Shown here: positions 24,053 through 57,600 of the stretch, one piece after another
Layout: each line of letters opens with the position of its first letter
Numbering within the stretch: position 1 is the first letter of the stretch
DNA from: Flavobacteriales bacterium
Lineage (GTDB): Bacteria > Bacteroidota > Bacteroidia > Flavobacteriales_E > Vicingaceae
NCBI GenBank assembly: GCA_013359255.1
Contig: JABWCF010000003.1
Span: 62,001 to 126,000, forward strand
DNA: 64,000 nt
Direction: 5' to 3'
Program-made: the position numbers and the translations under genes
Notes under the pieces: model-generated
Told to the model about the DNA's origin: nothing
Databases searched by the model: none
The model's input: only the letters and a program-made list of their open reading frames with translations

Positions 24053-25396
24053 TTAGCTTGGTCGTTCACAGCCTTTGCGGTTATAATACCACCAATTTAT
24101 AATGGTAGCTACAACAAAAAATACGGCAATAGTGTAAAAGAATCCGTTGGAATTTCCGGTGCTAGATAAAAATGCACTAACAGAAGTAGCAAAAATAAAA
24201 GGACCGAAAGCTGCAATGGCAGCGGTAAAACCAATAACTCCCGCAGCTTGTCTTGGATTATGACTAAATATAATGGGGTATTGGCGGAATGTGGCTGCAT
24301 TGCCCATGCCGGTAATAAAAAACAAAAATAACATTAAGTATAAGAATGAGGGAAATTGGTCTACTGAGGTAGGAGTAAGCAAACCTAACTGAACCATAGC
24401 TACACAACCAATAATCAAACCTATTCCGGTAAGTGTTGTAAGAATAGCTCCACCTACTTTATCAGCTATAAACCCAAACAATACGCGACTAGATGCCCCA
24501 ATAAGAGGGCCTAAAAATGCGTACTTCAGCGCATCAGGAGCATCAGGAAAATTACCGTATACCGTTTTTATCATTAATGGAAAAATAGCTGCTAATCCTG
24601 AAAACCCACCAAATGTCATTACATAGGTTATGGTGCAAAACCAGGTATGTTTATCGCTAAAAATATCTAATTGTTCTTTGAAAGAAGCTTTTACAGGTAT
24701 ACTTTTAATCAGATACCATGAAGCAATTGCTAAAATCACTAAAAGCGGCACATACCATAAAGCAGCACTTTGCAAATAAATTTCGGAAGTCCCCAACACT
24801 TCACCTGTTTTTGAATCAGTTTTAGTAAAAACTTGTGCTGCACCATATGTAGCAACCCCAAGCATAGCAGGAGTCATAAACTGGGCTACACTTACACCGA
24901 AATTTCCGATGCCCGCTTGAATACCCAACGCAGTACCTTGCAATCTTTTAGGAAAATACAAACTAGTACTTGGCATGTAAGAAGAAAAATCTCCTCCTCC
25001 AAAACCTGCAGTAAAAGCAATTACCATAAATACCCAAAATGGAGTAGTTGTGTTCATTACCGCCAACCCTAAACCTATAGCCGGAATTAATTTAATAATA
25101 GTAGAAATACTAATTACATGTCTTGAACCGTAAATAGGCAACAAAAAGGTATGTACAATACGCAGCAAACCAGCGGCTAATCCAGGCATAGCAGCAAGCC
25201 AAAACAGTTGGTCTTTATCGAACTTAAATCCGATACCCGGAAGTTTGGTTACAATGGCACTCATCATAAACCAAGTTGCGAAAGATAATATAAGAGAAAT
25301 TGTTGTTACAGTTAGCACCTTCCATGCAATTTTACTGCCCTCGGAATCCCAAAACTCTTTGTTCTCAGGTTCCCATTTTGTAAGCCATGTTGCCAT
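24053..25396 (-). CDS. NarK-type nitrate/nitrite transporter (NarK1-like)
   Basis: A 447-residue MFS transporter with about 12 membrane helices. The nitrate signature regions are FTAGFGGGDFSSYMPSTSLY with GIQAGIGNFGVSVAQ in the N-half and GMGNAATFRQYP with AAGVIGFTAAIAAFGPF in the C-half, both typical of the NarK/NNP family. The sequence type resembles NarK1 (nitrate/proton symport) rather than the paralogue at 26429. It is divergent from a Crp/Fnr regulator gene, and a shared TGAT-N4-ATCAT palindrome lies midway, about 83 bp from its start. Confidence 0.88.
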   Translation of the reverse strand: MATWLTKWEPENKEFWDSEGSKIAWKVLTVTTISLILSFATWFMMSAIVTKLPGIGFKFDKDQLFWLAAMPGLAAGLLRIVHTFLLPIYGSRHVISISTIIKLIPAIGLGLAVMNTTTPFWVFMVIAFTAGFGGGDFSSYMPSTSLYFPKRLQGTALGIQAGIGNFGVSVAQFMTPAMLGVATYGAAQVFTKTDSKTGEVLGTSEIYLQSAALWYVPLLVILAIASWYLIKSIPVKASFKEQLDIFSDKHTWFCTITYVMTFGGFSGLAAIFPLMIKTVYGNFPDAPDALKYAFLGPLIGASSRVLFGFIADKVGGAILTTLTGIGLIIGCVAMVQLGLLTPTSVDQFPSFLYLMLFLFFITGMGNAATFRQYPIIFSHNPRQAAGVIGFTAAIAAFGPFIFATSVSAFLSSTGNSNGFFYTIAVFFVVATIINWWYYNRKGCERPS

Positions 25397-25472: not shown

Positions 25473-25486
25473 ATGATTTGAATCAT
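25473..25486. promoter_or_regulatory. FNR-like palindrome, box 1
   Basis: ATGATTTGAATCAT, core TGAT-N4-ATCA, centred about 83 bp from the narK start and 86 bp from the regulator start, so it may control both divergent genes. Similar to the FNR/DNR half-site pattern TTGAT-N4-ATCAA. Confidence 0.7.
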
Positions 25487-25564
25487 AAATTGAATGAATA
25501 CACATTGATTTTGTTTTTAAAATGTAATGAATTAAATATAATTTCGTGGCAAACATTTTTAAAA

Positions 25565-26269
25565 ATGTCGGCCAATTATTTTTGTAAAACCTGCCCTCAG
25601 AAAAACTGCGTAATAAAGCTATGCAGCGAGGCTGATATGCAAGAAGTGTCGGACAAAAAAGAAACTAGTATTTACCGCAAAGGTCAGGTAATTTTTAGCG
25701 AAGGCAGCACTGTGTTTGGAATATACATTATACACAACGGAAAAGTAAAAGTTTACAATACGGGGTTTAATTTAAAACAACAAATTCTTCGATTTTCTGT
25801 AGATGGTGATTTACTAGGACACAGAGGGTTTGGTGCAAAAAAATATTCCATTGGAGCTATCGCTATAGAAGACTCTGTTATTTGTTTTATCGACAATCCT
25901 CTTTACTACAGAATCATCAAAAGAAACACCGAAATGCTTTTTCATATAATGGCTTTTTATGCTAGTGAATTAAGGGCGGCAGAAGCAAGAATGAAAAATC
26001 TTTCACAAATGAGTGTAAGAGAAAAAGTGGCTGAATCATTACAAATAATGAGTGCTATTTTTGGTAAAAAAGAAAAAGAAAAAATTGTGCTCGACACTCC
26101 TTTAACTCGTCAGGAAATGGCAGAAATAGGCGGAATGAGACCTGAACAATTTATTAAAGAGTTGAACATTTTCATAGCCGACAAGGTGGTTGGTTTCAGC
26201 GATAAAAACATCATTATAAATAAGCCCCATGTTTTATCAGAACTGTTAAGTATCTACAACCAACAATAA
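25565..26269 (+). CDS. Crp/Fnr regulator with N-terminal cysteine cluster
   Basis: A 234-residue protein with an N-terminal C7-x2-C10-x4-C15-x4-C20 cluster that could hold an iron-sulphur cluster, a cyclic-nucleotide-like beta barrel (IYRKGQVIFSEGSTVFGIYIIHNGKVKVY) and a C-terminal winged helix (LTRQEMAEIGGMRPEQFIKELN). The recognition helix lacks the classic ETxSR of FNR. ATG 25565 is chosen because the longer frame begins with TTG inside the palindrome box 1. The gene is framed by two nitrate transporters and FNR-like boxes, which suggests an anaerobic or nitrogen-oxide sensor. Confidence 0.85.
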   Translation: MSANYFCKTCPQKNCVIKLCSEADMQEVSDKKETSIYRKGQVIFSEGSTVFGIYIIHNGKVKVYNTGFNLKQQILRFSVDGDLLGHRGFGAKKYSIGAIAIEDSVICFIDNPLYYRIIKRNTEMLFHIMAFYASELRAAEARMKNLSQMSVREKVAESLQIMSAIFGKKEKEKIVLDTPLTRQEMAEIGGMRPEQFIKELNIFIADKVVGFSDKNIIINKPHVLSELLSIYNQQ

Positions 26270-26303
26270 AACATTATATATCAGCTAAATGAACCAACAT
26301 AAC

Positions 26304-26315
26304 TGATATGTATCA
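26304..26315. promoter_or_regulatory. FNR-like palindrome, box 2
   Basis: TGATATGTATCA, followed by T, upstream of the plus-strand narK gene. It lies 44 bp (about four helical turns) upstream of box 3, suggesting side-by-side binding. Confidence 0.65.
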
Positions 26316-26347
26316 TATTTTTTTCTGTTAAAAAACTACATTCTACT

Positions 26348-26359
26348 TGATACTTATCA
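26348..26359. promoter_or_regulatory. FNR-like palindrome, box 3
   Basis: TGATACTTATCA preceded by T and followed by T, centred about 75 bp before the narK start at 26429. Shares the extended NTGAT-N4-ATCAT form with the other four boxes. Confidence 0.7.
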
Positions 26360-26428
26360 TATAGAAAAGTATTCAGCCCGTTCACTTTTGCGTTGTAATA
26401 TTTTTTGTAGAATAAAAAACATACCCTT

Positions 26429-27985
26429 ATGAAAAAACCAGAATTATTAGATTTTAGTCAAGAAAGAATCCGTGTGCTACACTACACATGGATTGCATTT
26501 TTCGTAACATTTTATGTTTGGTTCAATATGGCACCGTTAGCTACAACAATGCTCGATGCGTTAGATTGGCTTAAACCGGAACATATAAAAGTGCTTGCTA
26601 TTTGTAACGTAGCATTAACCATACCCGCCCGCATCATTGTGGGAGCATTGATTGATAAATATGGTCCGCGTGTTGTATTTTCGGGCTTAATGGTAGTAAT
26701 GGCCATACCCGCAATATTTTTTGCATTTGGAAATTCGTTTATTCAATTAACAGTTGCCCGATTATTTTTAGGATCTATCGGTGCCGGTTTTGTAATTGGA
26801 ATCAAAATGGTAGCTAATTGGTTTCCCCCAAAGATAATAGGAAGGGCAGAAGGTTTTTATGCTGGTTGGGGAAATTTTGGTTCTGCATGGGCCGCCATGA
26901 CATTGCCTTGGTTTGCTATTACCGTATGTAAAGATTGGTTTGGTTTGGGCGAAGATGCTTGGCGATACGCTTTAGCTTTTAACGGATTGGTTTCTTTCGT
27001 TTATGGTATTATGTATTACTTTTTAGTAAAAGATATGCCCGACCATGCTCGTGCTAAAGCTGTAAAAGGAAAGGCAGAACCCATGACAGTAACCTCTTAC
27101 GGAGATTTAATTCAATATTTATTGTGGTCTTTCCCATTAGTGGGAGCAATGGGAGCATTAGCATGGAGAATAGGCAGTATTAAAGTTGACGGGGAAGCAT
27201 TGATACCACAAAACGGTTTATACACCATATATGCAGTACTTGCATTTATATATGTTGCACACGTAGTAAAAACGTTGCAAATAAACTTGCCCATCCTTAA
27301 AAAAGGAGTTCCGGAAAACGAAAAATACAGTTGGGGTAGCGTGGCCGCACTAAACAGCACCTATTTTGCAAATTTTGGTGCAGAACTAGCAGTAGTTTCA
27401 ATGTTACCCATGTTTTTTGAAATTACATTTTCTTCATTAACCAATGCAGAAAATCAACCTTTAATGACTGCCACACTTGCCGGATTAATAGCCTCATCGT
27501 TTGCATTTGTTAATCTTTTTGCACGACCACTTGGTGGCTATTTATCAGATACTATGAAGAACAGAAAACGCACCATGCTAATTTACATGGTAGGTATTGC
27601 GCTAGGTTTTTTGGCTATGGGTTTTATCGGAAAACAAGGCCATGTTGATGCAAATGGCTTAGTATCATTGGTGCCTACATTTAATGGTGTATGGTGGTTG
27701 GTGGTTGCGGTAGTAATTACCGTTGCCTGCTCTATGTTTGTGCAAGGAGCAGAAGGTGCCACATTTGCCATTATACCCATGATAAACAAAAAAATGACCG
27801 GGCAAATTGCCGGAATGGCCGGAGCTTATGGTAATGTGGGTGCGGTTGTTTATCTTATTCTTTATTCATTAGTTGAAACAAACACTTTCTTTTACATCTG
27901 TTCTGCAGGTGCCACATTTAGCTTTCTGTACTGTTTGTTTTTCTTGAAAGAGCCTGAAGGTTCGTTTGCCGAAAGCCATGATTAA
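26429..27985 (+). CDS. NarK/NasA-type nitrate/nitrite transporter, second type
   Basis: A 518-residue MFS protein with 12 or more membrane helices, a central cytoplasmic loop and an extended C-half. Nitrate-family motifs are RLFLGSIGAGFVIGIKMVANWF with GRAEGFYAGWGNFGSAWA, and FVQGAEGATFAIIPMINKKM with GQIAGMAGAYGNVGAV. It differs clearly from the 24053 transporter, so the pair may split nitrate uptake and nitrate/nitrite exchange, as in the NarK1/NarK2 pairs of denitrifiers. Two FNR-like boxes lie upstream. Confidence 0.9.
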   Translation: MKKPELLDFSQERIRVLHYTWIAFFVTFYVWFNMAPLATTMLDALDWLKPEHIKVLAICNVALTIPARIIVGALIDKYGPRVVFSGLMVVMAIPAIFFAFGNSFIQLTVARLFLGSIGAGFVIGIKMVANWFPPKIIGRAEGFYAGWGNFGSAWAAMTLPWFAITVCKDWFGLGEDAWRYALAFNGLVSFVYGIMYYFLVKDMPDHARAKAVKGKAEPMTVTSYGDLIQYLLWSFPLVGAMGALAWRIGSIKVDGEALIPQNGLYTIYAVLAFIYVAHVVKTLQINLPILKKGVPENEKYSWGSVAALNSTYFANFGAELAVVSMLPMFFEITFSSLTNAENQPLMTATLAGLIASSFAFVNLFARPLGGYLSDTMKNRKRTMLIYMVGIALGFLAMGFIGKQGHVDANGLVSLVPTFNGVWWLVVAVVITVACSMFVQGAEGATFAIIPMINKKMTGQIAGMAGAYGNVGAVVYLILYSLVETNTFFYICSAGATFSFLYCLFFLKEPEGSFAESHD

Positions 27986-28020
27986 TGTTTGGAAATACAT
28001 TGAGATTTAATACCTAGTTG

Positions 28021-28036
28021 TATGATTGGTATCATA
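28021..28036. promoter_or_regulatory. FNR-like palindrome, box 4
   Basis: TATGATTGGTATCATA, the most symmetric of the five boxes (6-bp half-sites), centred about 80 bp upstream of the porin ATG. Confidence 0.75.
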
Positions 28037-28108
28037 ACACTGAGATAGAATACAAAATAACTTTGAGAGCATAAATAATCAATAGTGATTAAATATAAAC
28101 CTAAAAAA

Positions 28109-29446
28109 ATGAAAACAAAAAAAGTACTCTCTGTGTGCAGTTTGATGGCAATGGTAGGTCTTTCTACTATGCAGCTACAAGCACAATCAAATTTTTCGGG
28201 TCAAATTATGCAGCGTGCCGAGTACATGCACGGATTTGGTTCTTTAGCCGATACAAGCCAAAATGCCGGCACATACATTGGCCAAAGGGCTAGATTAAAC
28301 TTTAATCATAATGCCGAAAAATTTAAAATCGGAGTATCTGTACAAGATATTCGAATTTGGGGAAATACCTCACAAATAAAAATTACCGATGGGTTACTTT
28401 CGGTACACGAAGCCTGGGGAGAAATAATATTTAATAAAAAACTGTCGGCCAAACTCGGAAGGCAAGAATTAAACTACGATGATGCCCGTTTTTTAGGAAA
28501 CTTAGACTGGGCATTGCAAGCAAGAGCACATGATATTGCATTGTTTAAATTCACCGATAGTTCATTTGCATTACATCTTGGTGCTGCATACAACCAAAAC
28601 GAAATAAAATCAATTGGAAATTATTATACCGTTCCTAACCAATACAAGGCGGCACAAATGCTTTGGATGGAGAAACAACTAAAACCTCTAACTATTAGTT
28701 TTTTAGCATGGAACAATGGGATGCAATTCAGCAAAGTTAATTCTGACGGAAAAATAGAAGAAAGTATAAAGTATTCTCAAACCATTGGTTTACCAAAAAT
28801 TGAATATAGCAAATCGGGTTTAACAGCTACTGGTTTTTATTACCACCAAATAGGCAAAACGGTAAAAGACCAAAATATAAATGCTTTCGATGCAGGTGTC
28901 GATATATCTTATGTTAAAACCCTAAATGATTCAATAAAAAATAAAATCAGATTCACCATTGGATACGAAATTCTTTCCGGCACAAGTCAAACCGACACAG
29001 CCAATAAAGATAATAATTCGTACAACCCAATGTACGGAACCAATCACCGTTTTAACGGATATATGGATTATTTTTACGTAGGTGGCCGCCACGCCAACTC
29101 TGTAGGCTTACAAGATGCTTACATCAGAATTCGATATGATTTTAATCCAAAATTATTTGCCTCTATAAATGCACATTATTTTATGGCCGCAGCCGATGTA
29201 AGAGATAAAAAAGTGGTAACCGAAATTTATCGAATGGATGATGCACTAGGCTCGGAGATTGATTTTACTTTAGGGTATTTAATTAACGATGCGGTTTCTC
29301 TTCAAGCAGGGTATTCCCAAATGTTTGCAACCGAAACAATGAAAGCATTGAGAGGCGGAAGTCTTGATGAAATGCAAAATTGGGCATATGTTAGCATTCT
29401 TTTCAGACCTAATATGAAAGTAAGGTTTTCCGGACTTAAATTTTAA
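28109..29446 (+). CDS. Alginate-export-family outer-membrane porin
   Basis: A 445-residue outer-membrane beta barrel. A signal peptide (residues 1-25, cut after LQAQ) precedes alternating amphipathic strands and a C-terminal aromatic residue (KF). YIGQRARLNF and KLGRQELNYDDARFLGNLDW are characteristic of the alginate_exp/porin group. ATG 28109 is chosen because it starts the signal peptide; a GTG at 28085 adds eight unlikely residues. The FNR-like box 4 upstream and the narK neighbours suggest an anion or nitrogen-oxide-related pore; the substrate is not shown by the sequence. Confidence 0.8.
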   Translation: MKTKKVLSVCSLMAMVGLSTMQLQAQSNFSGQIMQRAEYMHGFGSLADTSQNAGTYIGQRARLNFNHNAEKFKIGVSVQDIRIWGNTSQIKITDGLLSVHEAWGEIIFNKKLSAKLGRQELNYDDARFLGNLDWALQARAHDIALFKFTDSSFALHLGAAYNQNEIKSIGNYYTVPNQYKAAQMLWMEKQLKPLTISFLAWNNGMQFSKVNSDGKIEESIKYSQTIGLPKIEYSKSGLTATGFYYHQIGKTVKDQNINAFDAGVDISYVKTLNDSIKNKIRFTIGYEILSGTSQTDTANKDNNSYNPMYGTNHRFNGYMDYFYVGGRHANSVGLQDAYIRIRYDFNPKLFASINAHYFMAAADVRDKKVVTEIYRMDDALGSEIDFTLGYLINDAVSLQAGYSQMFATETMKALRGGSLDEMQNWAYVSILFRPNMKVRFSGLKF

Positions 29447-29464
29447 TTTATAAAAAAAGTAGCC

Positions 29465-30199
29465 ATGAAAAATAAATTCTTAACCATCGCCATTATAACA
29501 TTTGCCAGCATTGTCACTATTTGGTCTTGCAGCAAACACCCAGTGATGCCCTCGCATTCATCACTTTATTTAAACATAAAGTACTTAATCGATGATGCCT
29601 TACTAGAATTAGATACAATTAAATACACCAACGAAGCAGGCAATACGTATAGCGTAAGTAAATTAGAATATTTTATTTCTAACATTTCACTTAAAAAATC
29701 TGATGGATCTGTTTACAAAAGCAAAAAAATACAATATGTGAATGCCGCCAAAGAAAAATCAAATCAGATATACTTAGATTCTATTAGCCCAGGCACCTAC
29801 ACAGAACTATCGTTTATAATTGGCCTAAGTGCCGAGCAGAATGTTTCGAATAGTTTACCCAGCATACCCGAAAACAACAACATGTATTGGCCCGACCACA
29901 TGGGAGGAGGATACCATTTTATGAAATTCGAAGGACACTTCAATGATACAACTGCTACACCTGGATACGCCATTCACTTAGGAAAAACTGCCTATGCAGT
30001 TAAAATTAAAATTGCAAAACAAATTAAACTTACCCTTAGAAATCAAAAACAAACACTTAGCATGAATTTAAACGAATGGTTTAAAAATCCTAATGTTTTT
30101 GACCTAACAGGGGGAAACAATTACACCATGAGCAATGATTCGCTGATGAATGTAATAAGCAAAAACGGAGTAGATGTTTTTACTCTACCCGACAAGTAA
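29465..30199 (+). CDS. MbnP-family lipoprotein
   Basis: A 244-residue lipoprotein with lipobox cysteine C22 (after ASIVTIWS). The fold and motifs match MbnP, a copper-binding partner of MbnH: NIKYLIDD, YSVSKLEYFISNISL, NMYWPDHMGGGYHFMKFEG with aromatic residues, and AIHLGKTAYAV. In the characterised pair MbnH oxidises an MbnP tryptophan to kynurenine. It lies 18 bp after the porin and 83 bp before the MbnH-like gene, so the pair is conserved here. Confidence 0.82.
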   Translation: MKNKFLTIAIITFASIVTIWSCSKHPVMPSHSSLYLNIKYLIDDALLELDTIKYTNEAGNTYSVSKLEYFISNISLKKSDGSVYKSKKIQYVNAAKEKSNQIYLDSISPGTYTELSFIIGLSAEQNVSNSLPSIPENNNMYWPDHMGGGYHFMKFEGHFNDTTATPGYAIHLGKTAYAVKIKIAKQIKLTLRNQKQTLSMNLNEWFKNPNVFDLTGGNNYTMSNDSLMNVISKNGVDVFTLPDK

Positions 30200-30214
30200 A
30201 ATAAAAATTCTCCC

Positions 30215-30248
30215 ATCAAGAAGTATAATATAAATCATATTTCTTGAT
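30215..30248. other. Imperfect 34-bp inverted repeat between mbnP- and mbnH-like genes
   Basis: ATCAAGAA (30215) and TTCTTGAT (30241) are perfect 8-bp arms with a partly matched AT-rich interior. There is no T-run, so it is a poor terminator. It lies just upstream of the MbnH-like gene and could be an operator or an RNA processing hairpin. Confidence 0.55.
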
Positions 30249-30282
30249 AGGGATATTGCGTAACTTTATAAAAAATAGAGTT

Positions 30283-31314
30283 ATGCAAGTATTAAAACAA
30301 ACACTATACATGGCAGCCGCGATAGCGGTTGCCATTTTATTTTTTTCATGCAGAAAAAAGAAAGCTGACAAGGCACCCGATGACGCCTACGTGCCAACAC
30401 CCTATAATATTCAATATCCATCATACTTTCCGGCTATGCACATTGCCGAAGACAATCCACTTACTGTTGAAGGAGTAGAATTAGGAAGAAAGCTTTATTA
30501 CGATCCTCTTCTCTCCAAAGGAGGTCCAAACGATGGAAAATCTTGTTCCAGTTGCCACATTCAACAATATGGATTTACCCTGCCAAATTCCATTGTGCTC
30601 CCACACATCAATTTAGGTTTCAACTCTAATTTTTCATGGAAAGGGGCCGTAAGCGGCACAATGGAAGATATGATGAAATTTGAAGTTGAAGAATTTTTTG
30701 CTGCCACTCCTGCAAATTTTCAACAACATGCAGAATACCCTACACTCTTTAAACGTGTTTTCGGCTCAGAAACCATTACACACAAAGAACTTGCCTATGC
30801 ATTGGCACAATTCTTCAGAACCATGATTTCGAGTAATTCCCGTTTTGATAAATACCTTAGAAAGGAATTACAACTAACCCCATCGGAACTTAACGGTTTT
30901 ATGATTTTTAACACCGAAAAAGGCGATTGTTTTCACTGCCACACCGTTGGGCTTTTTACCGATAATCAATTCCATAATATCGGATTAGATTCTGTTTTTA
31001 CAGGAGAAAATCAGGGTCGTACCGAAATTACAGGTATGCCCACCGATTTGGGAAAATTTAAAACCTCAACCCTGCGTAATGTAGCCTTACGAAACAGCTT
31101 TATGCACGATGGCCGCTTTACCACGTTAGCACAGGTAATAGATCATTACAATACCGGAGTAAAAAAATCAAATACCTTAGACCCTATAATGACCAAACCG
31201 GGCAAAGAATTCGGGCTGCAATTAAACGCGTTGGAAAAAGCCGATTTAATAGCATTCCTGAACGCATTAACAGACGAATCGTTTATTACAAACCCCTCGC
31301 TATCTAAGCCTTAA
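30283..31314 (+). CDS. Di-heme cytochrome c peroxidase / MbnH-like lipoprotein
   Basis: A 343-residue protein with a lipoprotein signal (Cys23 after LFFS) and two heme-binding motifs: C88-S-S-C91-H92 and C216-F-H-C219-H220. LYYDPLLSKGG, DGKSCSSCHIQQYGF and FKTSTLRNVALRNSFMHDGRF are typical of the CcpA/MauG superfamily. Next to the MbnP-like gene it is best read as MbnH; a plain cytochrome c peroxidase is the alternative. ATG 30283 begins the signal; the TTG at 30244 lies in the inverted repeat. Confidence 0.88.
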   Translation: MQVLKQTLYMAAAIAVAILFFSCRKKKADKAPDDAYVPTPYNIQYPSYFPAMHIAEDNPLTVEGVELGRKLYYDPLLSKGGPNDGKSCSSCHIQQYGFTLPNSIVLPHINLGFNSNFSWKGAVSGTMEDMMKFEVEEFFAATPANFQQHAEYPTLFKRVFGSETITHKELAYALAQFFRTMISSNSRFDKYLRKELQLTPSELNGFMIFNTEKGDCFHCHTVGLFTDNQFHNIGLDSVFTGENQGRTEITGMPTDLGKFKTSTLRNVALRNSFMHDGRFTTLAQVIDHYNTGVKKSNTLDPIMTKPGKEFGLQLNALEKADLIAFLNALTDESFITNPSLSKP

Positions 31315-31323
31315 TAAGGCAAC

Positions 31324-31335
31324 TGATAAAAATCA
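31324..31335. promoter_or_regulatory. FNR-like palindrome, box 5
   Basis: TGATAAAAATCA followed by T, centred about 54 bp upstream of the hemerythrin gene at 31384, the head of a six-gene plus-strand operon. Confidence 0.65.
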
Positions 31336-31383
31336 TGACATCCTATTTCTAAAAAGCGTAATTTTATCGAAAATATAACGCTT

Positions 31384-33130: not shown

Positions 33131-33841
33131 ATGTCATCTTCCAGACTGAACAATATTCAAAAACTTTTACACGAACATTGCTCTCCGGAGTGGCTCGATT
33201 TACTTGCTTTCAAAAGCGAAGAAAAAATCTACCCTTCAGAAAGTTTTCTCTTAAAGGAGGGTGAAGAGGTTGAGCATATTTACATTATTCTTTCGGGCAA
33301 AGTAAAAGTTTTTGCTACAGAACAACCTAATGAAGAAAGAATCATCAGATTAGCAGGAGATGGCTATATTGTGGGCCATCGTTCGTTTGGAAAAAATTTT
33401 AATTTCCCGGTAAGCGCAAAAACCCTAACCACTACCACCGTTTTACAAATTCCCATACAGGTTTTTCAGAATTTACTAAAAGCAAACAACTTATTCTGCT
33501 ACCACTTTTTAATGTTTATGGCCGAAGAATTAAAAGATTCTGAGATTCATATCAAGGAACTTACCAACAATACCGTATTGCAGCGTGTAACGAAGGTAAT
33601 TAAAATAAATGCCGAAGTATTTGGCTACAGTACCATTGAAAAAAATATGCTTTCATTTACCCTATCACGCAAAGATATTGCGAACTTCGCAGGCACTACT
33701 TACGAAACCGTTATCAGAACATTAAATACCCTAGAAAAAATGGGGGTAATAAAAACCAATAAAAAAAACCTTTATATTCTTAACAGTAAAGAACTCCATA
33801 AAATTATTGAACAAAAAAATGTAAAACAACCTGCCGATTAA
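33131..33841 (+). CDS. Crp/Fnr-family regulator, second
   Basis: A 236-residue protein with an effector-binding barrel (SFLLKEGEEVEHIYIILSGKVKVF) and a winged helix (LSRKDIANFAGTTYETVIRTLNTL). It lacks an N-terminal cysteine cluster. Its recognition helix ETVIR is closer to that of FNR (ETISR) than the 25565 regulator's, so this one may be the better candidate for binding TGAT-N4-ATCA boxes. It sits within the hemerythrin-moaA-nadAB operon. Confidence 0.88.
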   Translation: MSSSRLNNIQKLLHEHCSPEWLDLLAFKSEEKIYPSESFLLKEGEEVEHIYIILSGKVKVFATEQPNEERIIRLAGDGYIVGHRSFGKNFNFPVSAKTLTTTTVLQIPIQVFQNLLKANNLFCYHFLMFMAEELKDSEIHIKELTNNTVLQRVTKVIKINAEVFGYSTIEKNMLSFTLSRKDIANFAGTTYETVIRTLNTLEKMGVIKTNKKNLYILNSKELHKIIEQKNVKQPAD

Positions 33842-48715: not shown

Positions 48716-51637
48716 ATGACGACAAAAACAGAAACAAAACAGTTTCAATATGAAATACAAAGCTATCAGGAGGACTGTGTCACAAACATTACCAGTCTTT
48801 TTGAGAGCCTTCGCCAAAAAGTGAATTTTGGTGAGGTGCTGACAGCACACCACAAAAAGAATAAATACAATTTTCCAATTCAAGACACTAAAAACATTGA
48901 CATAATGATGGAAACTGGAACGGGTAAAACCTTCACGTTTATAAAAACCATTTTTGAACTGAGCAAGCATTTCGGCTACAAAAAATTTATCATTCTTATT
49001 CCGACAGTTCCAATTCGAGAAGGAACAAAAACAAACTTAGAGGACACCAAAGATTACTTCAAAAGCTTTTACGCCAACGAGAAAGAAAAGGAAATTGAAA
49101 CCTTTGTTTACGAAGGAGGAAACATTTCAGCCGTTAGACAATTTATCGGCACTTCGCATTTATCGGTTTTGGTAATGACACCAAGTTCATTCAGCCACAA
49201 AGACAATATCTTAAACCGACCATTAGAAAAAGACATTAACACGCCTGAACTATTCATAAACAATCAGGAACCGCCAAAATCATATTTGGAATGTTTGAAA
49301 CGTCTGAATCCGATTGTAATAATGGACGAACCTCACCGTTTTGAGGGTAACGCTTTTAAAACCTATTTCGAAGGTTTTGAAAATTACTTTTTACGTTTTG
49401 GTGCTACTTTCCCAAAAAAGAAAGACAGTCTGCCTTTATCAAACGTGGCGTATGTATTAGATAGCATTTCTTCATTCCGACAAAGTTTGGTAAAGAAAAT
49501 TGTGGTTTACACGCAAGACGTAGTTGAGAACACAGACACACTCATTGGAATTGAAAAAATTGGAACAGTAAACAAAGCCCATGTAAGCACTTTAACCAAC
49601 GGAATTATTGCCAGACGAGAATTAGGAGTTGGAGCAGTTTTCAACGGTAAAAGCATAAAGAAAATAAACAAAGACACTATTGTGTTAGCAGACGACACCA
49701 TTGAAAAAGTTGATTATTCTTTGTCTGACGAATCATTACGGGCAATGATTAAGGAAACAATCAAAATTCATTTTGAGAAAGAAAAAGGTTTGTTTGAGCA
49801 AGGCGTAAAAGCTTTGACCTTGTTTTTTATGGAGAGCGACACCAGTTTATTTCGTGGCGAAAATCCGAAAGTCAAAAACATTTTTGAAGAAGAATACAAA
49901 AAGCAATACACAGAAATTGTAAACAAACTTGACCAATCAAGCGACTATTATAAATTCTTGCAGAACGATTTTGACAGCGACAATACTCTGCAAGTTCACA
50001 AAGGATATTTTTCAGGCGACAAAGGAAACGCAGACGAAAAAGTAAAAGCAGGTGTTGACGAAATTCTGAAAGACAAAAAGAAGTTACTATCGTTTGATAG
50101 TCCTACTCGTTTCATTTTCTCCATTTGGGCATTACAGGAAGGTTGGGACAATCCGAATGTATTTACCATTTGTAAACTTTCCAATCAAGGAAGTGAAATA
50201 TCAAAATTGCAACAGATTGGTAGAGGTTTACGCATTTGCGTAAATCAAAATTTACAGCGTAACACGCTTAAAAATCTTAATGACGACCAAGAAGCATTTT
50301 GGAAAATCAACAACCTTGATGTAGTTGTATCAAGCAAAGAACACGGTTTTGTTGAGGCAATTCAAAATGAAATTCTAAGCAATTCATTCCTGATTTCTGA
50401 AACATTCACCGAGCAAGAACTCATTAAGACACTCAAAGAAAAATCGGGCTTTGATGATGATACAGTAGTTACTTTGGTGGATGATATTTTGAAAGACAAG
50501 AAAATGATTGTTCGTAAGGCAATTGTTGACGGACAAAAGATTTACGAAAAATCGCCCGAGTTTTCAGCCATTCTAAAAGAACAAAATTTGCCAGAAGAAC
50601 AAGTAAAAGCAATTGAAAGTTTGTTTGCAACCGATACAAACACTTACGTTCAGAAAGCGGAGAAGAAAAGAGAGAAAAAGAAAGTTTTCATAAAGGCAAC
50701 GCATTTACAAGAGTTTCAAAACCTTTGGAACGCCATCAATAAAAATGCTTTTTATGTGTTGGAAACTTTGACAGCAGAACAGGAAAGCCAACTGATCCAA
50801 AACATAAAAACTCAAATAGAAGCGGTAAACATTGAAGAAATTCTATTGCAGACCATACGTGCAGAATTGAACGTAAACAAAATTGGCGAACAAGGAGCAA
50901 TTACAGAAAAGCTGACCGACACAGTTTCATACAAAAGCAAAGTTGATTATTTGGAATTGGTTCGCAATTTATCAAACAATACCAAAACCCCTATTTCATT
51001 TGTGGTTAAGGTTTTCAATGCTTTGAGTGATGATTTCAAGACCAAAATGCTCTGCAACAATCCTGAACAGGCACAACGAGAAATTTCAGAAATAATCAAC
51101 AAGAACTTAATTGCAATGCTCAAAGCAAACATTAAGTATGATGGAATTAATGGAACAGGTTTGCCAAACGTATTCAAGAGCGAAAAAGGAAAAACCTATT
51201 TAGATACAGGAAGCGTTGGCAAGTTTCAAAAAGACATTGCAGGCGATTTCAGTTTAAAAACCAAATGGGTATTTGAAGACGTGATTGAATATGATAGTGA
51301 TTTTGAATTGGAAATTGTGGAGCAAGACCCCGACATTGACAGCATTGAAATTTTCGGCAAACTTCCACGCCTGAAAATCAAAACACCATTGGGAGATTAC
51401 AACCCCGATTTTTGCTATGCTATAAAAAGCACCGAAGGCAACAAAATATTCCTTGTAGTGGAAGCCAAAGGCTATAAATCGTCAACGGCAATCCCTGTGG
51501 ATGAAAAAGGAAAGATTGACTTTGCCAAAAAGTATTTTGAGGCATTGGGCGAACACTACAAAGACCAAAACATTAAAATTTCATTTAAAGAACGTATCAG
51601 TAACAAGCAATTAGCAGCACTGATAAACAACGCATAA
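48716..51637 (+). CDS. res: Type III restriction enzyme, Res subunit
   Basis: A 973-residue superfamily 2 helicase-nuclease. Walker A is METGTGKTFTF (66-72), motif II is IVIMDEPHRF near 204, and motif VI is QQIGRGLRICVN. The C-terminal PD-(D/E)XK site is GDYNPDFCYA ... FLVVEAKG (residues about 895-920). It translocates with the Mod subunit and cuts unmodified DNA. It is followed 4 bp later by mod; in most described type III systems mod comes first. Aspartate codons are mainly GAC here, unlike GAT in the flanking chromosome, which points to foreign origin. Confidence 0.93.
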   Translation: MTTKTETKQFQYEIQSYQEDCVTNITSLFESLRQKVNFGEVLTAHHKKNKYNFPIQDTKNIDIMMETGTGKTFTFIKTIFELSKHFGYKKFIILIPTVPIREGTKTNLEDTKDYFKSFYANEKEKEIETFVYEGGNISAVRQFIGTSHLSVLVMTPSSFSHKDNILNRPLEKDINTPELFINNQEPPKSYLECLKRLNPIVIMDEPHRFEGNAFKTYFEGFENYFLRFGATFPKKKDSLPLSNVAYVLDSISSFRQSLVKKIVVYTQDVVENTDTLIGIEKIGTVNKAHVSTLTNGIIARRELGVGAVFNGKSIKKINKDTIVLADDTIEKVDYSLSDESLRAMIKETIKIHFEKEKGLFEQGVKALTLFFMESDTSLFRGENPKVKNIFEEEYKKQYTEIVNKLDQSSDYYKFLQNDFDSDNTLQVHKGYFSGDKGNADEKVKAGVDEILKDKKKLLSFDSPTRFIFSIWALQEGWDNPNVFTICKLSNQGSEISKLQQIGRGLRICVNQNLQRNTLKNLNDDQEAFWKINNLDVVVSSKEHGFVEAIQNEILSNSFLISETFTEQELIKTLKEKSGFDDDTVVTLVDDILKDKKMIVRKAIVDGQKIYEKSPEFSAILKEQNLPEEQVKAIESLFATDTNTYVQKAEKKREKKKVFIKATHLQEFQNLWNAINKNAFYVLETLTAEQESQLIQNIKTQIEAVNIEEILLQTIRAELNVNKIGEQGAITEKLTDTVSYKSKVDYLELVRNLSNNTKTPISFVVKVFNALSDDFKTKMLCNNPEQAQREISEIINKNLIAMLKANIKYDGINGTGLPNVFKSEKGKTYLDTGSVGKFQKDIAGDFSLKTKWVFEDVIEYDSDFELEIVEQDPDIDSIEIFGKLPRLKIKTPLGDYNPDFCYAIKSTEGNKIFLVVEAKGYKSSTAIPVDEKGKIDFAKKYFEALGEHYKDQNIKISFKERISNKQLAALINNA

Positions 51638-51641
51638 AACA

Positions 51642-53579
51642 ATGGCAGAACAAGATTTTATAAAAGCAGGATTTACAGTGGTTGGAACAGAAAACAACGA
51701 AAACAAATTGTTGAGTTTTCTGAAAGAGAACTACCCCAATGTAATCCGTGACACCGAAATAAATTTAGAAGAACTAAAAACCGTTTTGGGTTTACCGATT
51801 GACGAAAAGGTAAACGGTTACGGGTTAAACTTCGTAGGTCGAAACTTTGCAAGGGCAAAATATGCTCAAAAGACAGAAAAAGAGTTACTCCTAAATGATT
51901 CTTTAAGTAAAAACCTTGATAAAACAGAAAATTTGATTTTGAAAGGAGACAATCTTGACACTCTGAAAATCCTTAAAAATCATTACAGTGGCCAAATAAA
52001 GTGCATATACATAGACCCACCGTATAATACGAAAAGTGAAGAGTTTGTTTACCCTGATAAGTTTGATAAAGAGGAAGCGGAAGTTTTGGGCTTGGCAAAC
52101 TTAAGTGAAAGCGATTTTGCAAGAATGGACTTTAGTTTTAAAACCAAGAAGAGCCACAATGGTTGGTTGGCATTTATGTATCCTCGGCTTTTGTTGGCAA
52201 GAGATTTATTAAGCAAAGATGGTGTAATATTTATATCAATCGATGAAAATGAACATGCTCAATTAAAAATGCTCTGTGATGAAATTTTTGACGATGAAAA
52301 TTTTGCAGGCGACATTGTTTGGAAAAATAGCAGTAAAAATGATGAAGCATACATTTCTATGCAACATGAGTATGTTTTAGTCTATGTAAAGTCAAAAATT
52401 CACAATCTCGGTAAATGGGAAGAATTAAAAGAAGGACTTCCTGAAATATATAAGGCATTTGATGAGTTTAGAAAAAAACATGGAAATGATTGGGAGAAAA
52501 TCCATGAAGAGGGTTTGGCTTGGTTTAATCAATTTCCAGATTCTAATCCTATTAGAAACAGCAAGCATTACAATTGGATGGATGAAGAAGGGGTATATTT
52601 TCCCGATAATATTTCCAAGCCTGCCAAAGGTTACTATTACGACATAATACACCCAGTAACAAAACAACCTTGTAAAAAACCTGCTGGTGGTTGGCGTTTT
52701 ATTGAATCCACAATGAATGAAAAAATTGCACAAAACAAAATTCACTTTGGAAAAGACCACACAGTTGTCCCTAACAATAAAACGTATCTTAAAAACACCG
52801 AGTATCAAAGTTTAACCAGTGTAATATTTAAAGATGGTCGGGTAGCTTCCAACTGGCTTAAAACTCTTTTCGGTGTTAAAGATATTTTTACAAATCCGAA
52901 GGACTATGGTGTGCTAGTAAATTTAATGAAAGCTATTTCAATATCTAATAACGATATTGTCCTCGATTTTTTTGCTGGTTCTGGCTCAACAGGCGAAGCT
53001 GTTATGAGACTTAACGCAACAGATGGAGGAAACAGGAAATTTATTTTGTGCCAATTAGATGAGCCAATTAAAGACGATAAACCCGCTTATCAATTTTGCT
53101 TAGAAAACAATTTACCTCCAGTAATTTCAAGCATAACAATAGAACGACTAAAACGAGCAGGTGAAATAATTGCAAAGGAAGTCGAAGAAGCAAACAGCAA
53201 AACAGGAATGTTTGATGAAAATAAAAAACAAGTTCCTGATATTGGCTTTAAAGTGTTTGACAGCGTTGAAGCTCCGAAACTGAAAATAGATGACAAAGGA
53301 CAAATTTCATTTACTGAAAATCAAACGGATGCTTTAAGTCGCATTTACAATATGATTTTCACAGTAGGTTTAGACGAGCCAACACAAGTTCCTGAAGAAG
53401 TTGTAAAAGATTGCATTTACAAAATCAATAACCACTATTACATAACCAACAGCGAGAAAATTACGAGTGACGATTATTCGAACGCTATTAAAAACGGCAA
53501 AGTATTCATTGACGGTTGGACAGCCAGCCTAAACGGAACTTTGCAGAACTATAAAGAAGATGTGAAGATTGTGTTTTAA
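51642..53579 (+). CDS. mod: Type III DNA adenine methyltransferase, Mod subunit
   Basis: A 645-residue beta-class N6-adenine methyltransferase: motif IV IDPPYNT near 125 comes before the SAM-binding DFFAGSGSTGEAVMRLN near 442, which is the beta-class order. The region between them (about 200-420) is the target-recognition domain, which decides the methylated sequence and cannot be predicted here. It modifies one strand and gives Res its specificity. No simple-sequence repeat for phase variation is visible in the gene. Confidence 0.93.
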   Translation: MAEQDFIKAGFTVVGTENNENKLLSFLKENYPNVIRDTEINLEELKTVLGLPIDEKVNGYGLNFVGRNFARAKYAQKTEKELLLNDSLSKNLDKTENLILKGDNLDTLKILKNHYSGQIKCIYIDPPYNTKSEEFVYPDKFDKEEAEVLGLANLSESDFARMDFSFKTKKSHNGWLAFMYPRLLLARDLLSKDGVIFISIDENEHAQLKMLCDEIFDDENFAGDIVWKNSSKNDEAYISMQHEYVLVYVKSKIHNLGKWEELKEGLPEIYKAFDEFRKKHGNDWEKIHEEGLAWFNQFPDSNPIRNSKHYNWMDEEGVYFPDNISKPAKGYYYDIIHPVTKQPCKKPAGGWRFIESTMNEKIAQNKIHFGKDHTVVPNNKTYLKNTEYQSLTSVIFKDGRVASNWLKTLFGVKDIFTNPKDYGVLVNLMKAISISNNDIVLDFFAGSGSTGEAVMRLNATDGGNRKFILCQLDEPIKDDKPAYQFCLENNLPPVISSITIERLKRAGEIIAKEVEEANSKTGMFDENKKQVPDIGFKVFDSVEAPKLKIDDKGQISFTENQTDALSRIYNMIFTVGLDEPTQVPEEVVKDCIYKINNHYYITNSEKITSDDYSNAIKNGKVFIDGWTASLNGTLQNYKEDVKIVF

Positions 53580-53590
53580 GCCCAAGCATT

Positions 53591-53720
53591 TTGCAAGCAC
53601 ATTTGCAAACCGCACAAGCCGATACACAAGTCAAAGTTTGCAAAAGAGCTTGCAAAGCCAACGCAGACAAAAATGGTTTTAAAAAATTTTCCGACCCTCC
53701 AAAAAAAATAAAAAACGCAA
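53591..53720 (+). repeat. Hairpin H2 with 3' AT-rich arm
   Basis: Hairpin 53591-53655 (TTGCAAGC-ACA-TTTGCAAAC against GTTTGCAAA-AGA-GCTTGCAA) closes the restriction-modification unit, followed by GCCAACGCA and an AT-rich arm (53665-53720). Read in reverse complement, that arm matches the H1 arm, including TTTTTTATTTTT. The hairpin itself keeps the same orientation as H1. Confidence 0.8.
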
Positions 53721-53793
53721 CGCACAGCCGACACTATAATGACAACAAAACTCAATACTGACAATGGTTTGCAAGGACAGATGGCAAAAGGCC

Positions 53794-53931
53794 TACTGCT
53801 AACAGCGGTTTGGCGTAATGGCGGGTGCAGTGCTTCGAATGACAGTTTTGTGGTAGGTTCAAGTGCAGTTCTTCGATTGAACTTTTGTGCTAAAAATCCG
53901 CCACTACGCCAAGCCGCAAAACGTTACCTGC
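53794..53931 (+). repeat. attC-like site B
   Basis: Inverse core TACTGCTAAC (53794) and core GTTACCTGC (53923); arms CGGTTTGGCGTAATGGCGG (53806) and CCGCCACTACGCCAAGCCG (53898) pair at 17 of 19 positions. The inverse core is the exact complement of GTTAGCAGTA at site A and matches its own core only at four bases, as expected for integrated cassettes. Loop repeats of the CTTCGAATGA/CTTCGATTGA type are present. Confidence 0.85.
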
Positions 53932-54027
53932 AAGCCTAAAAGACGACACAGCAAGAATGAACGACAGAAATAAACATAAAGTAACAGGACAAATGAAACA
54001 TCAGACAGCCGACCCAAAAGCCAACGC

Positions 54028-54151
54028 TTCTGTATTTTTATTTTTTCCCACCGCACATTTTTTAAAAACAATTTTAGCCAGCCGCACAAATGGCACATTT
54101 GGTTTTGCCCGACACACAAGCCGACCCTTTGGCAAAATCAAAAGAGCCATT
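54028..54151 (+). repeat. Hairpin H3 with 5' AT-rich arm
   Basis: AT-rich arm (54028-54075, TGTATTTTTATTTTTT and TTTTTTAAAAACAATTTT) followed by hairpin 54087-54151: AAATGGC-ACA-TTTG against CAAA-AGA-GCCATTT, and an inner TTTTGCC/GGCAAAA stem. The stem sequence differs from H1, H2 and H4, yet pairing and the ACA/AGA bulge are kept. Tail TTGCCAACGCA follows. Confidence 0.8.
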
Positions 54152-54180
54152 TTTTGCCAACGCACTAACATAGAAGTAAT

Positions 54181-54681
54181 ATGAGTTTAAAAGGAGCAAA
54201 ATATATTGAAAACAAAAACATTCCTTGGGCATTAAACTTCAAGGAAGAACCTCAATTTTTCATTTACAGAATAGAACAAGAGGGAGAAAATATCAGACTA
54301 CATTATCTTGTAGAAGGCAGAGGAGTTAGCATTTATGTAACCGACCCAATAAAATATCAAGAGTTGCCTTCAAAGGTTGAAGTGATTTCAGGCGGTTGGT
54401 ATGGAGACAAAGGAAGATGGGCTCCATTGGAACGATATAAAGGAACTATCATTTGCGAGAAGGCAACTCAAATGAAAAAACTTTCTGACACAGGTGAAAA
54501 TTTCAAATTCAATGTTCGCAAACCGTTTTTATCAAGTAGTAAAATGCTGACAATAGAATCTGAAAAGGTTGGCATTGTTGAGATTAAATGTAAATCAATC
54601 ATTCCACAGGAATTTGAAATTTTACTTTTTAGCAAAAGTCAAAACAAATGGGTTCCGAGAAAATCTATGACATTTGAATAA
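54181..54681 (+). CDS. Unrecognised 166-residue protein, first gene of helicase operon
   Basis: I do not recognise this family. It has no signal peptide or membrane segment and appears to be a beta-rich soluble domain (alternating short strands, for example IRLHYLVEGRGVSIYVTD and VEVISGGWYGDKGRW). Its TAA overlaps the ATG of the helicase gene by one base (TAATG), so the two are translationally coupled and probably function together. Confidence 0.7.
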   Translation: MSLKGAKYIENKNIPWALNFKEEPQFFIYRIEQEGENIRLHYLVEGRGVSIYVTDPIKYQELPSKVEVISGGWYGDKGRWAPLERYKGTIICEKATQMKKLSDTGENFKFNVRKPFLSSSKMLTIESEKVGIVEIKCKSIIPQEFEILLFSKSQNKWVPRKSMTFE

Positions 54682-57600
54682 TGCAACTACAAGCAGGATA
54701 CATATTTGACTTTATCAAAAAGAAACTATCAGAGAGCAACGACAACTCTGAAGTTTCTGCTTTGCTTAAAAGTTTATCCTACTTTGAAATTGATTCCGAC
54801 ACAACAACCATTGATAACAGCAAACCCGAATTAGCAGTTTTAAGTAATCTGCTTTCAAAAGGGCTACCGACTCGACCAAGTTTATTTCTTGAACAGGCTT
54901 TTTTGAACACTTTTAAAATCGGTGAAACGAAAACCGATGAATTGGGAAACATAGAAACAGTTCCGAACAGTTCATTTGACAGCATTTCAAAACTTCTTTT
55001 CCAATCGCTTCACACAATTGACCCAAGAATAAAAGCCGAAAAATCAAAACTCAAACTTGAACCAAGTTTTGAGTTTGATAAAATCGGTAGCAAATACGAA
55101 GAAGATTTTTTGTTCAGACACATTCCTCAATTCATAGGCGAAGAATGGTTTCAGCTTTTGGAATCTCAAAGAGAGTTTACTTCAATCGTAAATTTTGATT
55201 CAACTTTTACAAGACAGCGAACGGATTTCACTATTGAATTTCCTTACAAGATTTCGGACAAGCACGGAATTGTAATTGAAATTGATGGACCACATCATTG
55301 GGAGAATCAAAGCCAAATGATTTTGGACGAACAAAGAGATACGGCAACAGCAAATACAGGTTGGTTAAATACTTTGAGAATACAGACAAGAAATTTTGGC
55401 AACATTCAAGGTCAGTTAACCCGCCTGAAAGAATTATCAAAGGAGCATTATTTTCAAATCCTCAAACAGAATTTTGCAACTCCTTTTTATCAAAACGAAA
55501 TTGGACTTAGGACACTTCAAGTTGTTCTATCTCCTTTTGCCATTGCCCGACTTCAAAAAGTTTTGATTCATTCCATTATTCAAAACAAACTCAATCTTCA
55601 AAACAAGAAATGGAACATTGCAGTAATTGAAAGAGATGTTCCTTGTGCTGCATTAGCAATCGCAGATTTGCAACAACAACTCAAAAACATTTTCGCCTTA
55701 AAAGGCGAAAATGTTTTTCCTGAAATTGAACTCACAGTTTTTGTAACTCCTGAATTCAAGTCAGCTGAAATAAACAGACAAGATTTCAAGAAACACTTTT
55801 CAAATATCAATTTCATTGACGTTGCTAACTCAACATCAAGTATTGAGTTTGATTTATTGCTTGATATTTCTATTCTGCAACGAAAGGGATTTTCGGGAAA
55901 TGAAATTTTTATCGCAGCAAAAAACAAAGTTGTAATTCGTTCCTCACATCATCTGACTACGAAAAGACATTTTCTAACCTCTGATGTTATTTCGTATCAA
56001 AAATTTGTTCAATACAATTCAAATAATCCTGACCAATCATTATTTGAGTTGAAGCCCATTCACACGCTTCGCTATTTTCTTCAAAATATATTTAGGAAAT
56101 ATAATTTTCGTGAAGGGCAGATTGAAATTTTAAATAAAGCATTACAGGGTGAAAGCGTTATAGGGTTATTACCGACAGGTGGCGGTAAGTCTTTAACCTA
56201 TCAACTTGCTGCATTGTTGCAGCCAGGCATTTGTCTTGTCATTGACCCGATAAAATCTTTGATGAAAGACCAGTTTGACAACTTGAAGAAAAATCAAATT
56301 GATGCTTGCAATTTCATCAACTCATCTTTAAAAACAAGAGAAGACAAGGAACGAGAAATAAAAAAACTCAAAAATGGTGAGGTGCTTTTTAGTTTCATTT
56401 CTCCTGAACGATTACAGATGAAGGAATTCAGAGACACTCTGAACGCAATGAATGAAAATCAAATCTTTTTCACCTATTGTGTAATAGACGAAGCACATTG
56501 CGTTTCGGAATGGGGACACGACTTCCGGACTTCCTATTTGAGTTTAGGTAAAAACGCTATTGAGTTCTGTAAGACAAAGAATAAAGAAACAATTCCGCTT
56601 TTCGGATTGACTGCTACTGCTTCCTTTGATGTTCTTTCAGATGTTCAGAGGGAACTTTCAGGCAACAACGATAGGCATAGATTGAAAGAAGATAGTGTTA
56701 TCAGGTTTGACACAGTTAACAGAAAGGAATTGAGTTATGAAATTATTGATGTCAATGCAAACCTGACTAAGCAAGATGACGATTGGAAGTTGAAAGAAAA
56801 ATTAGGCACAAGTAAGCAGGCTAAACTTATCAATCAACTTTCAAGATTTCCGTTTGATAAATCAAACGATTATGCGGGTATAATCTTTTGTCCTCACAAG
56901 GGTTGGTATTTCGGAGTGACGGACAGATACAAAGCAAATGCGACACAATTTAGAGGAGTTTATGATGCAGTTTTAAATGCAAAGATTCCCAACTTGAAGT
57001 TGGGTTCATTCATGGGTTCAGATGCAGACGATGAAAAGACAAGTGAGTTAATTGAAATAGATTCCATTCAAGCACAGGAAGATTTTATAGGAAACAAACT
57101 CAATCTACTTGTTTCTACAAAAGCTTTTGGAATGGGAATAGACAAACCAAATGTGAGATTCACTTTTCATATCAACTATCCAAGCTCAATAGAAAGTTTT
57201 GTTCAAGAAGCAGGAAGAGCAGGGAGAGATAGAAAGCCAGCAACTTGTTTTATTCTATTCAATAATGAACGAGTTAACAACGGAACTAAGGAACATGAGA
57301 TTGACAGAGATAATCTTCTATATTTTCACAACTCTTCCTTCAAAGGAGTTGAAAAAGAAAAAGCAATCTTGTATGAATTGCTTACAGCAATTCATACTCC
57401 GAATAAACTGTTTGATATTGAAGTTAAACTTTACGAACAGTTTGAACAAGACATAAACTTAGCACTGTGGCAGAGCCAAAAAGGATATTGGTATTTGTTT
57501 GTCAACGGTGAAACGTTTGAAGAGAAGTATGGAGCAGTTTGGATTCCGAGTTTGAAAGTTGATACAAGTAGAATTACAAAGCCACTAGATGAATGTGAAT

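What the first reader, a model, noticed from the sequence alone, without database searches (positions are those of the whole stretch)
25473..31336. Five TGAT-N4-ATCAT palindromes define a nitrate regulon
Boxes at 25473, 26304, 26348, 28021 and 31324 all lie in intergenic DNA 54-125 bp upstream of genes for NarK, Crp/Fnr, NarK, porin and the hemerythrin-moaA operon. By base composition only about two such 8-base cores would be expected in the whole window, yet five sit in under 6 kb, all ending in ATCAT. One of the two Crp/Fnr proteins in the region likely binds them.
Basis: partly seen in the sequence, partly recalled or inferred. Interest (0 to 1): 0.65.

Follow-up and report, generated by a model that had tools for sequence, protein, structure and literature searches.

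The report
Bacteroidota FNR-type anaerobic regulon boxes
Five short DNA palindromes in front of nitrate-respiration genes are very probably binding sites for an FNR-type (oxygen-responsive) activator protein, and the same sites recur in front of nitrate genes across the phylum Bacteroidota, where I found no earlier description of them.

Summary
Five TGAT-N4-ATCA palindromes lie in intergenic DNA between 25474 and 31335; shuffled window intergenic DNA gives 0.08 on average and never five in 2000 trials. They are part of a larger, conserved system. In 80 public narG loci, intergenic TGAT-N4-ATCA occurs 86 times (1-11 for other spacers), ATGAT-N4-ATCAT 63 times (0-1), and the classical FNR box TTGAT-N4-ATCAA once. 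The Bacteroidota sigma-A -7 element (TAnnTTTG) peaks at the distance that puts the box centre at -41.5, the class II activator position; boxes 26348, 28023 and 31324 fit it. The same box precedes narG, benzoyl-CoA reductase, a dearomatisation hydratase, modE-modA and Crp/Fnr genes elsewhere in the genome, so 'nitrate regulon' is right but too narrow. The best candidate binder is neither Crp/Fnr in the window but a third, FNR-like protein about 160 kb away, with FNR-type cysteines, an E-x-x-I-R recognition helix and a box in its own promoter; boxes are enriched only in family genomes carrying its orthologues (59 in 14 genomes, 9 in 18). The window's second Crp/Fnr may share the box; the first looks like a target. 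New variant of a known kind; binding and signal are untested.

The parts
25473..25486 (.). Box 1, ATGATTTGAATCAT, in the divergent narK1 / Crp-Fnr intergenic region
   Evidence: exact match; unchanged in the sister species; narK1 side has AATATTTG (5/6 to TAnnTTTG) at 25449-25442 on the - strand, offset 36
26304..26316 (+). Box 2, TGATATGTATCAT, distal box of narK2, 44 bp (2 x 22) upstream of box 3
   Evidence: tandem spacing of 22 bp is over-represented in relatives (20 against a mean of 2.3)
26348..26360 (+). Box 3, TGATACTTATCAT, proximal box of narK2; same core as the narG promoter box elsewhere in the genome
   Evidence: -7-like CACTTTTG at the -41.5 spacing
26383..26390 (+). -7-like element CACTTTTG (5/6 to TAnnTTTG), offset 35 from box 3
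   Evidence: sequence
28022..28035 (+). Box 4, ATGATTGGTATCAT, upstream of the porin-mbnP-mbnH genes
28058..28065 (+). -7 element TAACTTTG (6/6), offset 35 from box 4, so box centre at -41.5
   Evidence: sequence
31324..31336 (+). Box 5, TGATAAAAATCAT, upstream of the hemerythrin-moaA-Crp/Fnr operon
31359..31366 (+). -7-like element TAATTTTA (5/6), offset 35 from box 5
   Evidence: sequence
24053..25396 (-). narK1, nitrate/nitrite MFS transporter; target of box 1
   Evidence: TIGR00886, 276 bits, somewhat below its cut-off of 311.7
25565..26269 (+). F1: Crp/Fnr with four N-terminal cysteines and a Cys at the FNR C122 position; helix GMRPEQFIKEL; target of box 1
   Evidence: Pfam cNMP_binding + HTH_Crp_2
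26429..27985 (+). narK2, nitrate/nitrite MFS transporter; target of boxes 2 and 3
   Evidence: TIGR00886, 292 bits, somewhat below its cut-off
28109..29446 (+). Alginate_exp-type outer-membrane porin; target of box 4
   Evidence: PF13372
29465..30199 (+). MbnP-like copper-binding protein, probably in the porin operon
   Evidence: PF20243
30283..31314 (+). MbnH/MauG-like di-haem enzyme
   Evidence: PF03150, TIGR04039
31384..32109 (+). Hemerythrin / RIC-like di-iron protein; target of box 5
   Evidence: PF01814, TIGR03652
32124..33119 (+). moaA, GTP 3',8-cyclase for the molybdenum cofactor
   Evidence: TIGR02666 above its cut-off
33131..33841 (+). F2: Crp/Fnr, class B, helix GTTYETVIRTL, no C122 cysteine; in the box-5 operon; candidate second reader of the box

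Best explanation
The five boxes are operator sites of an FNR-type (Crp/Fnr family) transcription activator and belong to a genome-wide anaerobic regulon with the Bacteroidota operator tATGAT-N4-ATCATa (a TGAC/GTCA half-site is a tolerated variant). Shown: the sites are real, conserved, spacer-specific, lie at -41.5 from the predicted sigma-A -7 element at many promoters, and precede nitrate-respiration, molybdenum and regulator genes in many Bacteroidota. Inferred: under low oxygen a dimer of the FNR-like protein 'A1' encoded at G000:C18:249420-250133 binds the box. A1 has an N-terminal CxxC...C, a Cys at the FNR C122 position, an E-x-x-I-R recognition helix and a box in its own promoter. Bound at -41.5 it takes the place of a -33 element and recruits sigma-A RNA polymerase (class II activation). 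This switches on narK1/narK2, the porin operon, hemerythrin-moaA-Crp/Fnr, narG, modE-modA, the benzoyl-CoA reductase and hydratase genes, and further Crp/Fnr genes that may act on the same boxes as a second tier.
For: Window chance test: 5 observed, 0.08 expected, 0 of 2000. Sister species: 80/80 box columns kept against 407/439 elsewhere. 80 public narG loci: spacer 4 gives 86 intergenic sites against 1-11 for other spacers 0-12; ATGAT-N4-ATCAT 63 against 0-1; TGAT ranks first of 256 half-sites. narG operons with a box in the 1.7 kb upstream: 35 of 64 Bacteroidota, 0 of 13 others. -7 element (5 of 6 bases) at offset 35: 26 promoters against a mean of 1.35 per offset in relatives, 8 against 0.49 among own-genome promoters; TAnnTTTG spans -12 to -5 (PMC9723704), so the box centre is at -41.5. 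Tandem boxes 22 bp apart: 20 against 2.3. A second genus (G043) has a box before nearly every transcription unit of its nar/narK/moa cluster. Regulator: boxes track class A1 across 32 genomes (59 in 14 carriers, 9 in 18 non-carriers, p 1.2e-5; reversed control 13 and 10), also within genera g8 and g16. A1 genes whose promoters could be read carry a TGAY-N4-RTCA box about 60-106 bp upstream in most cases. A1 matches solved FNR (E 1e-23) with its C122 equivalent aligned.
Against: No binding or expression data. Class A1 co-occurs with classes B and C and with nitrate genes, so co-occurrence cannot separate them. Bacteroidales narG loci show boxes with a class B but no A1 gene within 10 kb. The N-terminal cysteines of A1 are spaced CxxC-x8-C, not CxxC-x5-C as in FNR. 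A1 scores 104 bits on the Fnr model, cut-off 228. A1 as a clade has weak support (81/66). One A1 carrier (G011) has no 16-base box. 29 of 64 Bacteroidota narG operons have no exact box. Loci related by descent are not independent; the own-genome -7 test avoids this.
Confidence: 0.72

Rival explanations
1. Same boxes, but the main reader is the window's second Crp/Fnr, F2 (33131-33841), or class B in general, acting as a DNR-like NO or nitrate sensor; A1 is only one more target.
For: Class B is a well-supported clade that sits beside narG or moaA in many loci, has the same E-x-x-I-R helix, and is the Crp/Fnr class near boxed narG promoters in Bacteroidales.
Against: Class B genes seldom have their own box. 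G004 carries A1 and boxes, but its Crp/Fnr hits included no class B. Boxes also control non-nitrogen genes.
Confidence: 0.17
2. The window's first Crp/Fnr, F1 (25565-26269), binds the boxes as a local nitrate regulator, as its position between the two narK genes suggests.
For: It has a box in its own promoter and lies between narK1 and narK2; FNR-type cysteines are present.
Against: Its helix PEQFIK lacks the R185 equivalent, and its relatives use EQLSR. Boxes occur far from any F1 gene. G004 (locus L122) has boxes without class C hits.
Confidence: 0.08
3. A canonical FNR/DNR regulon with the ordinary TTGAT-N4-ATCAA box.
For: Same half-site core and spacer; overlapping gene set with DNR/FNR regulons (PMC1274295).
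Against: TTGAT-N4-ATCAA occurs once in 140 kb of intergenic DNA while ATGAT-N4-ATCAT occurs 63 times; the base before TGAT is A in 84% of half-sites.
Confidence: 0.02
4. Chance palindromes in AT-rich intergenic DNA.
For: Whole-genome TGAT-N4-ATCA excess is only 63 against 35 in the reversed control, and that control is itself biased because it contains TAG.
Confidence: 0.01

Closest known systems
FNR regulon (Escherichia coli / Aliivibrio fischeri FNR)
   Same: Crp/Fnr fold, N-terminal CxxC cysteines and the C122 position, TGAT-N4-ATCA core, class II (-41.5) geometry, anaerobic nitrate-respiration targets
   Different: Outer base A instead of T (ATGAT, not TTGAT), Ile in place of Ser212, third Cys spacing x8, sigma-A -7 element TAnnTTTG, targets include benzoyl-CoA reductase; O2 sensing untested
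DNR / ANR regulons of Pseudomonas
   Same: Several Crp/Fnr paralogues possibly sharing one box; nar/nor/nos-type targets
   Different: Box TTGATnnnnATCAA (PMC1274295); no haem or NO-sensing evidence here
HcpR regulon
   Same: Variant half-site TGAC/GTCA seen upstream of some Bacteroidota Crp/Fnr genes
   Different: HcpR boxes are TTGACnnnnGTCAA, a CRP-like form or GTAACnnnnGTTAC and control hcp (PMC1274295)

Membership tests
FNR | cNMP-binding domain + Crp-type HTH | tested here: met
   A1 aligns to solved FNR over residues 10-233, E 1e-23; PF00027 and PF13545 in F1 and F2
FNR | Four cluster cysteines (C20, C23, C29, C122 of E. coli FNR) | tested here: inconclusive
   A1 has CxxC-x8-C and a Cys aligned to C122, but the third spacing differs from CxxC-x5-C
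FNR | Curated NCBIfam Fnr score (NF008365, 228 bits) | tested here: not met
   A1 104 bits; F1 57 and F2 76 bits
FNR | Recognition residues E209, S212, R213 | tested here: not met
   A1 and F2 have E and R but Ile for Ser; F1 has E, I, K
FNR | Operator TTGAT-N4-ATCAA | tested here: not met
   1 such site against 63 ATGAT-N4-ATCAT in the same DNA
FNR | Class II activation from -41.5 | tested here: met
   Predicted from -7 spacing only; no mapped transcription start
FNR | O2-labile [4Fe-4S] cluster | not testable with these tools
   needs protein
DNR | Operator TTGAT-N4-ATCAA | tested here: not met
DNR | Haem-based NO sensing | not testable with these tools
   needs protein
HcpR | TTGACnnnnGTCAA or GTAACnnnnGTTAC box before hcp | tested here: not met
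   Main box is ATGAT; TGAC-N4-GTCA only 14 times; hcp itself not searched
Class II Crp/Fnr-activated promoter of Bacteroidota | Box centred at -41.5 from a TAnnTTTG promoter | tested here: met
   26 against mean 1.35 and 8 against mean 0.49 at offset 35

The most novel reading that the evidence does not exclude
One ATGAT-N4-ATCAT operator, read by at least two Crp/Fnr paralogues (an FNR-like A1 and class B, perhaps with different signals), joins nitrate respiration and class I benzoyl-CoA (anaerobic aromatic) degradation into a single anaerobic regulon in Bacteroidota, with boxes in 22-bp tandem at narG-type promoters.
Probability: 0.35. Interest if true: 0.72.

Novelty: new variant of a known kind. 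Interest (0 to 1): 0.58.

Why it matters
Bacteroidota contain many nitrate reducers and denitrifiers, yet I found no described operator for their anaerobic gene control in the paper library; [quoted passage not shown] A defined operator, promoter geometry and candidate regulator make the question directly testable and would let regulons be read from metagenomes. The changed outer base together with Ile in the recognition helix is also a clean test of how Crp/Fnr specificity evolves.

Tried and rejected
Whole-genome counts against the reversed pattern proved a poor control: the reversed pattern contains TAG and is depleted in coding DNA, so G006, G020 and G037 looked enriched. The two G006 sites inspected lie inside genes, and the 16-base pattern removed most of the effect. 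One-mismatch sites in the window show no excess. A search for full -33/-7 promoters (TTTG-N17-21-TAnnTTTG) downstream of boxes found none. In one search the loci of minus-strand genes (L216, L217, L223, L224, L227) are in contig orientation, so their upstream readings there are invalid; read the G005, G016 and G024 genes with strand handled (all with a box), while G009 and G011 were not read elsewhere. No nirK and no nrfA were found in the genome. Paper searches for this motif in Bacteroidetes found none; the library lacks most subscription journals. No structure prediction was run, as it would not have settled DNA specificity.

Full report
Observation. Exact TGAT-N4-ATCA cores are at 25474, 26304, 26348, 28023 and 31324, all intergenic and all continuing as ATCAT. 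Intergenic DNA of the window, shuffled with dinucleotides kept, gives 0.079 such sites on average and never more than 2 in 2000 trials; five were seen. The sister species G005 keeps all 80 box columns while 32 of 439 other intergenic columns changed.

Surroundings. The boxes precede narK1 and the Crp/Fnr gene F1 (divergent), narK2 (two boxes 44 bp apart), a porin with mbnP/mbnH-type genes, and hemerythrin-moaA-Crp/Fnr F2. In the rest of the 2.92-Mb genome, intergenic ATGAT-N4-ATCAT sites precede a cytochrome c-narG operon, a benzoyl-CoA reductase operon (BcrC and BcrB above NCBIfam cut-offs), 6-oxocyclohex-1-ene-1-carbonyl-CoA hydratase (above cut-off), a modE-porin-modA operon, a UspA gene, a sigma-factor-like gene and two adjacent Crp/Fnr genes. 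The nosZ operon has a hybrid site AGTGATAGAAGTCATA with a perfect TAGATTTG at offset 36. There is no nirK and no nrfA.

Conservation. A scan of 84,980 species genomes with NarG gave 80 loci, mostly Bacteroidota. In their 140 kb of intergenic DNA, TGAT-N4-ATCA occurs 86 times and other spacers 1-11 times; ATGAT-N4-ATCAT 63 times against 0-1; TTGAT-N4-ATCAA once. TGAT is the top half-site of 256, TGAC the second. The consensus extends to tATGAT-N4-ATCATa, and second boxes sit 22 bp away far more often than at other distances. 35 of 64 Bacteroidota narG operons and 0 of 13 others have a box in the 1.7 kb upstream. In G043, another genus, boxes stand before the cytochrome-narGHJI operon (a 22-bp pair), hemerythrin-moaA-Crp, porin, a narK unit, two Crp/Fnr genes and a moeA-like gene, and on another contig before norC-norB.

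Promoter geometry. TAnnTTTG, the Bacteroidota -7 element, peaks exactly 35 bases after the box start, and secondary peaks at 57 and 79 fit boxes 22 and 44 bp further up. The element spans -12 to -5 (PMC9723704), so the box centre is at -41.5, the class II activator position of Crp/Fnr proteins (established knowledge). In the window, 28023 has TAACTTTG, 26348 CACTTTTG and 31324 TAATTTTA at that offset. The F1 side of box 1 has no -7 element there; a TAATTTCG at 25539 would put that box at -71.5, a class I position (inference). Own-genome promoters, which are not orthologues of each other, show the same peak (8 against a mean of 0.49).

Which regulator. The genome has seven clear Crp/Fnr proteins. 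Three carry N-terminal cysteines plus a Cys at the C122 position (F1, L047, A1); of F1 and A1, which were compared with solved structures, A1 matches FNR better. A1 and its relatives carry E-x-x-I-R helices and boxes about 60-106 bp upstream of their own genes in most cases that could be read. Across 32 family genomes of at least 90% completeness, the 16-base box totals 59 in 14 A1 carriers and 9 in 18 non-carriers (Mann-Whitney p 1.2e-5; reversed control 13 and 10), and the contrast holds inside genera g8 and g16. Genomes with only the related class A2 or only the receiver-Crp show no such excess, though A2 genes carry a hybrid TGAT/GTCA site near their start. The published correlation of Crp residues 180 and 181 with bases 3 and 6 (PMC1274295) fits a changed outer base in a protein with changed helix residues; which residue matters is inference. 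Classes B (F2) and C (F1) co-occur with A1, so a shared role is not excluded, and class B is a credible second reader.

Limits. Genes were called mechanically as longest open frames, so start codons are approximate. Public loci are related by descent, so their counts are not independent events; the spacer comparison and the own-genome -7 test are the strongest controls. Nothing here measures binding, oxygen sensing or expression.

Verdict. A real, conserved operator of an FNR-type anaerobic regulon in Bacteroidota, wider than nitrate, with a base change from the textbook FNR box. It probably works like FNR; it is not filed as FNR, because the operator, a recognition residue and the curated score were tested and not met.

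Noticed in passing
L029:955-4922 and L028:3841-4944 (in G000:C16:270836-275861 and 251262-261273): Class I ATP-dependent benzoyl-CoA reductase genes (BcrC, BcrB above NCBIfam cut-offs, a BcrA-like subunit) and 6-oxocyclohex-1-ene-1-carbonyl-CoA hydratase in a Flavobacteriales-type genome, both with a perfect box; no report of anaerobic aromatic degradation in such Bacteroidota was found in the papers searched.
   Followed up: partly
L233-L237, 16-31 bp upstream of class A2 Crp/Fnr genes: A conserved hybrid site TATGATATTTGTCA next to the start codon in five genomes, which looks like autoregulation by a related FNR-like protein.
   Followed up: no
L210, L122, L133, L152, L140 and G000:C18:250243-250935: A short, helix-diverged Crp/Fnr paralogue (GTTKNYLYK, GASLGYIRK and similar) repeatedly lies directly downstream of class A1, sometimes with its own box; it may be a partner or antagonist.
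   Followed up: no
29465-31314: An MbnP-like and MbnH/MauG-like pair sits in the nitrate region behind the porin; in G043 a similar protein next to the porin has its own box (L194:740).
   Followed up: partly
48716-58895: Type III restriction-modification-like genes followed by a large RecQ-like helicase gene, resembling a defence island.
   Followed up: no
L140, L167, L168, L206, L117, L132: Promoters of Crp/Fnr genes and neighbours with ATGAC-N4-GTCAT instead of ATGAT-N4-ATCAT, possibly a diverged operator in some lineages.
   Followed up: partly
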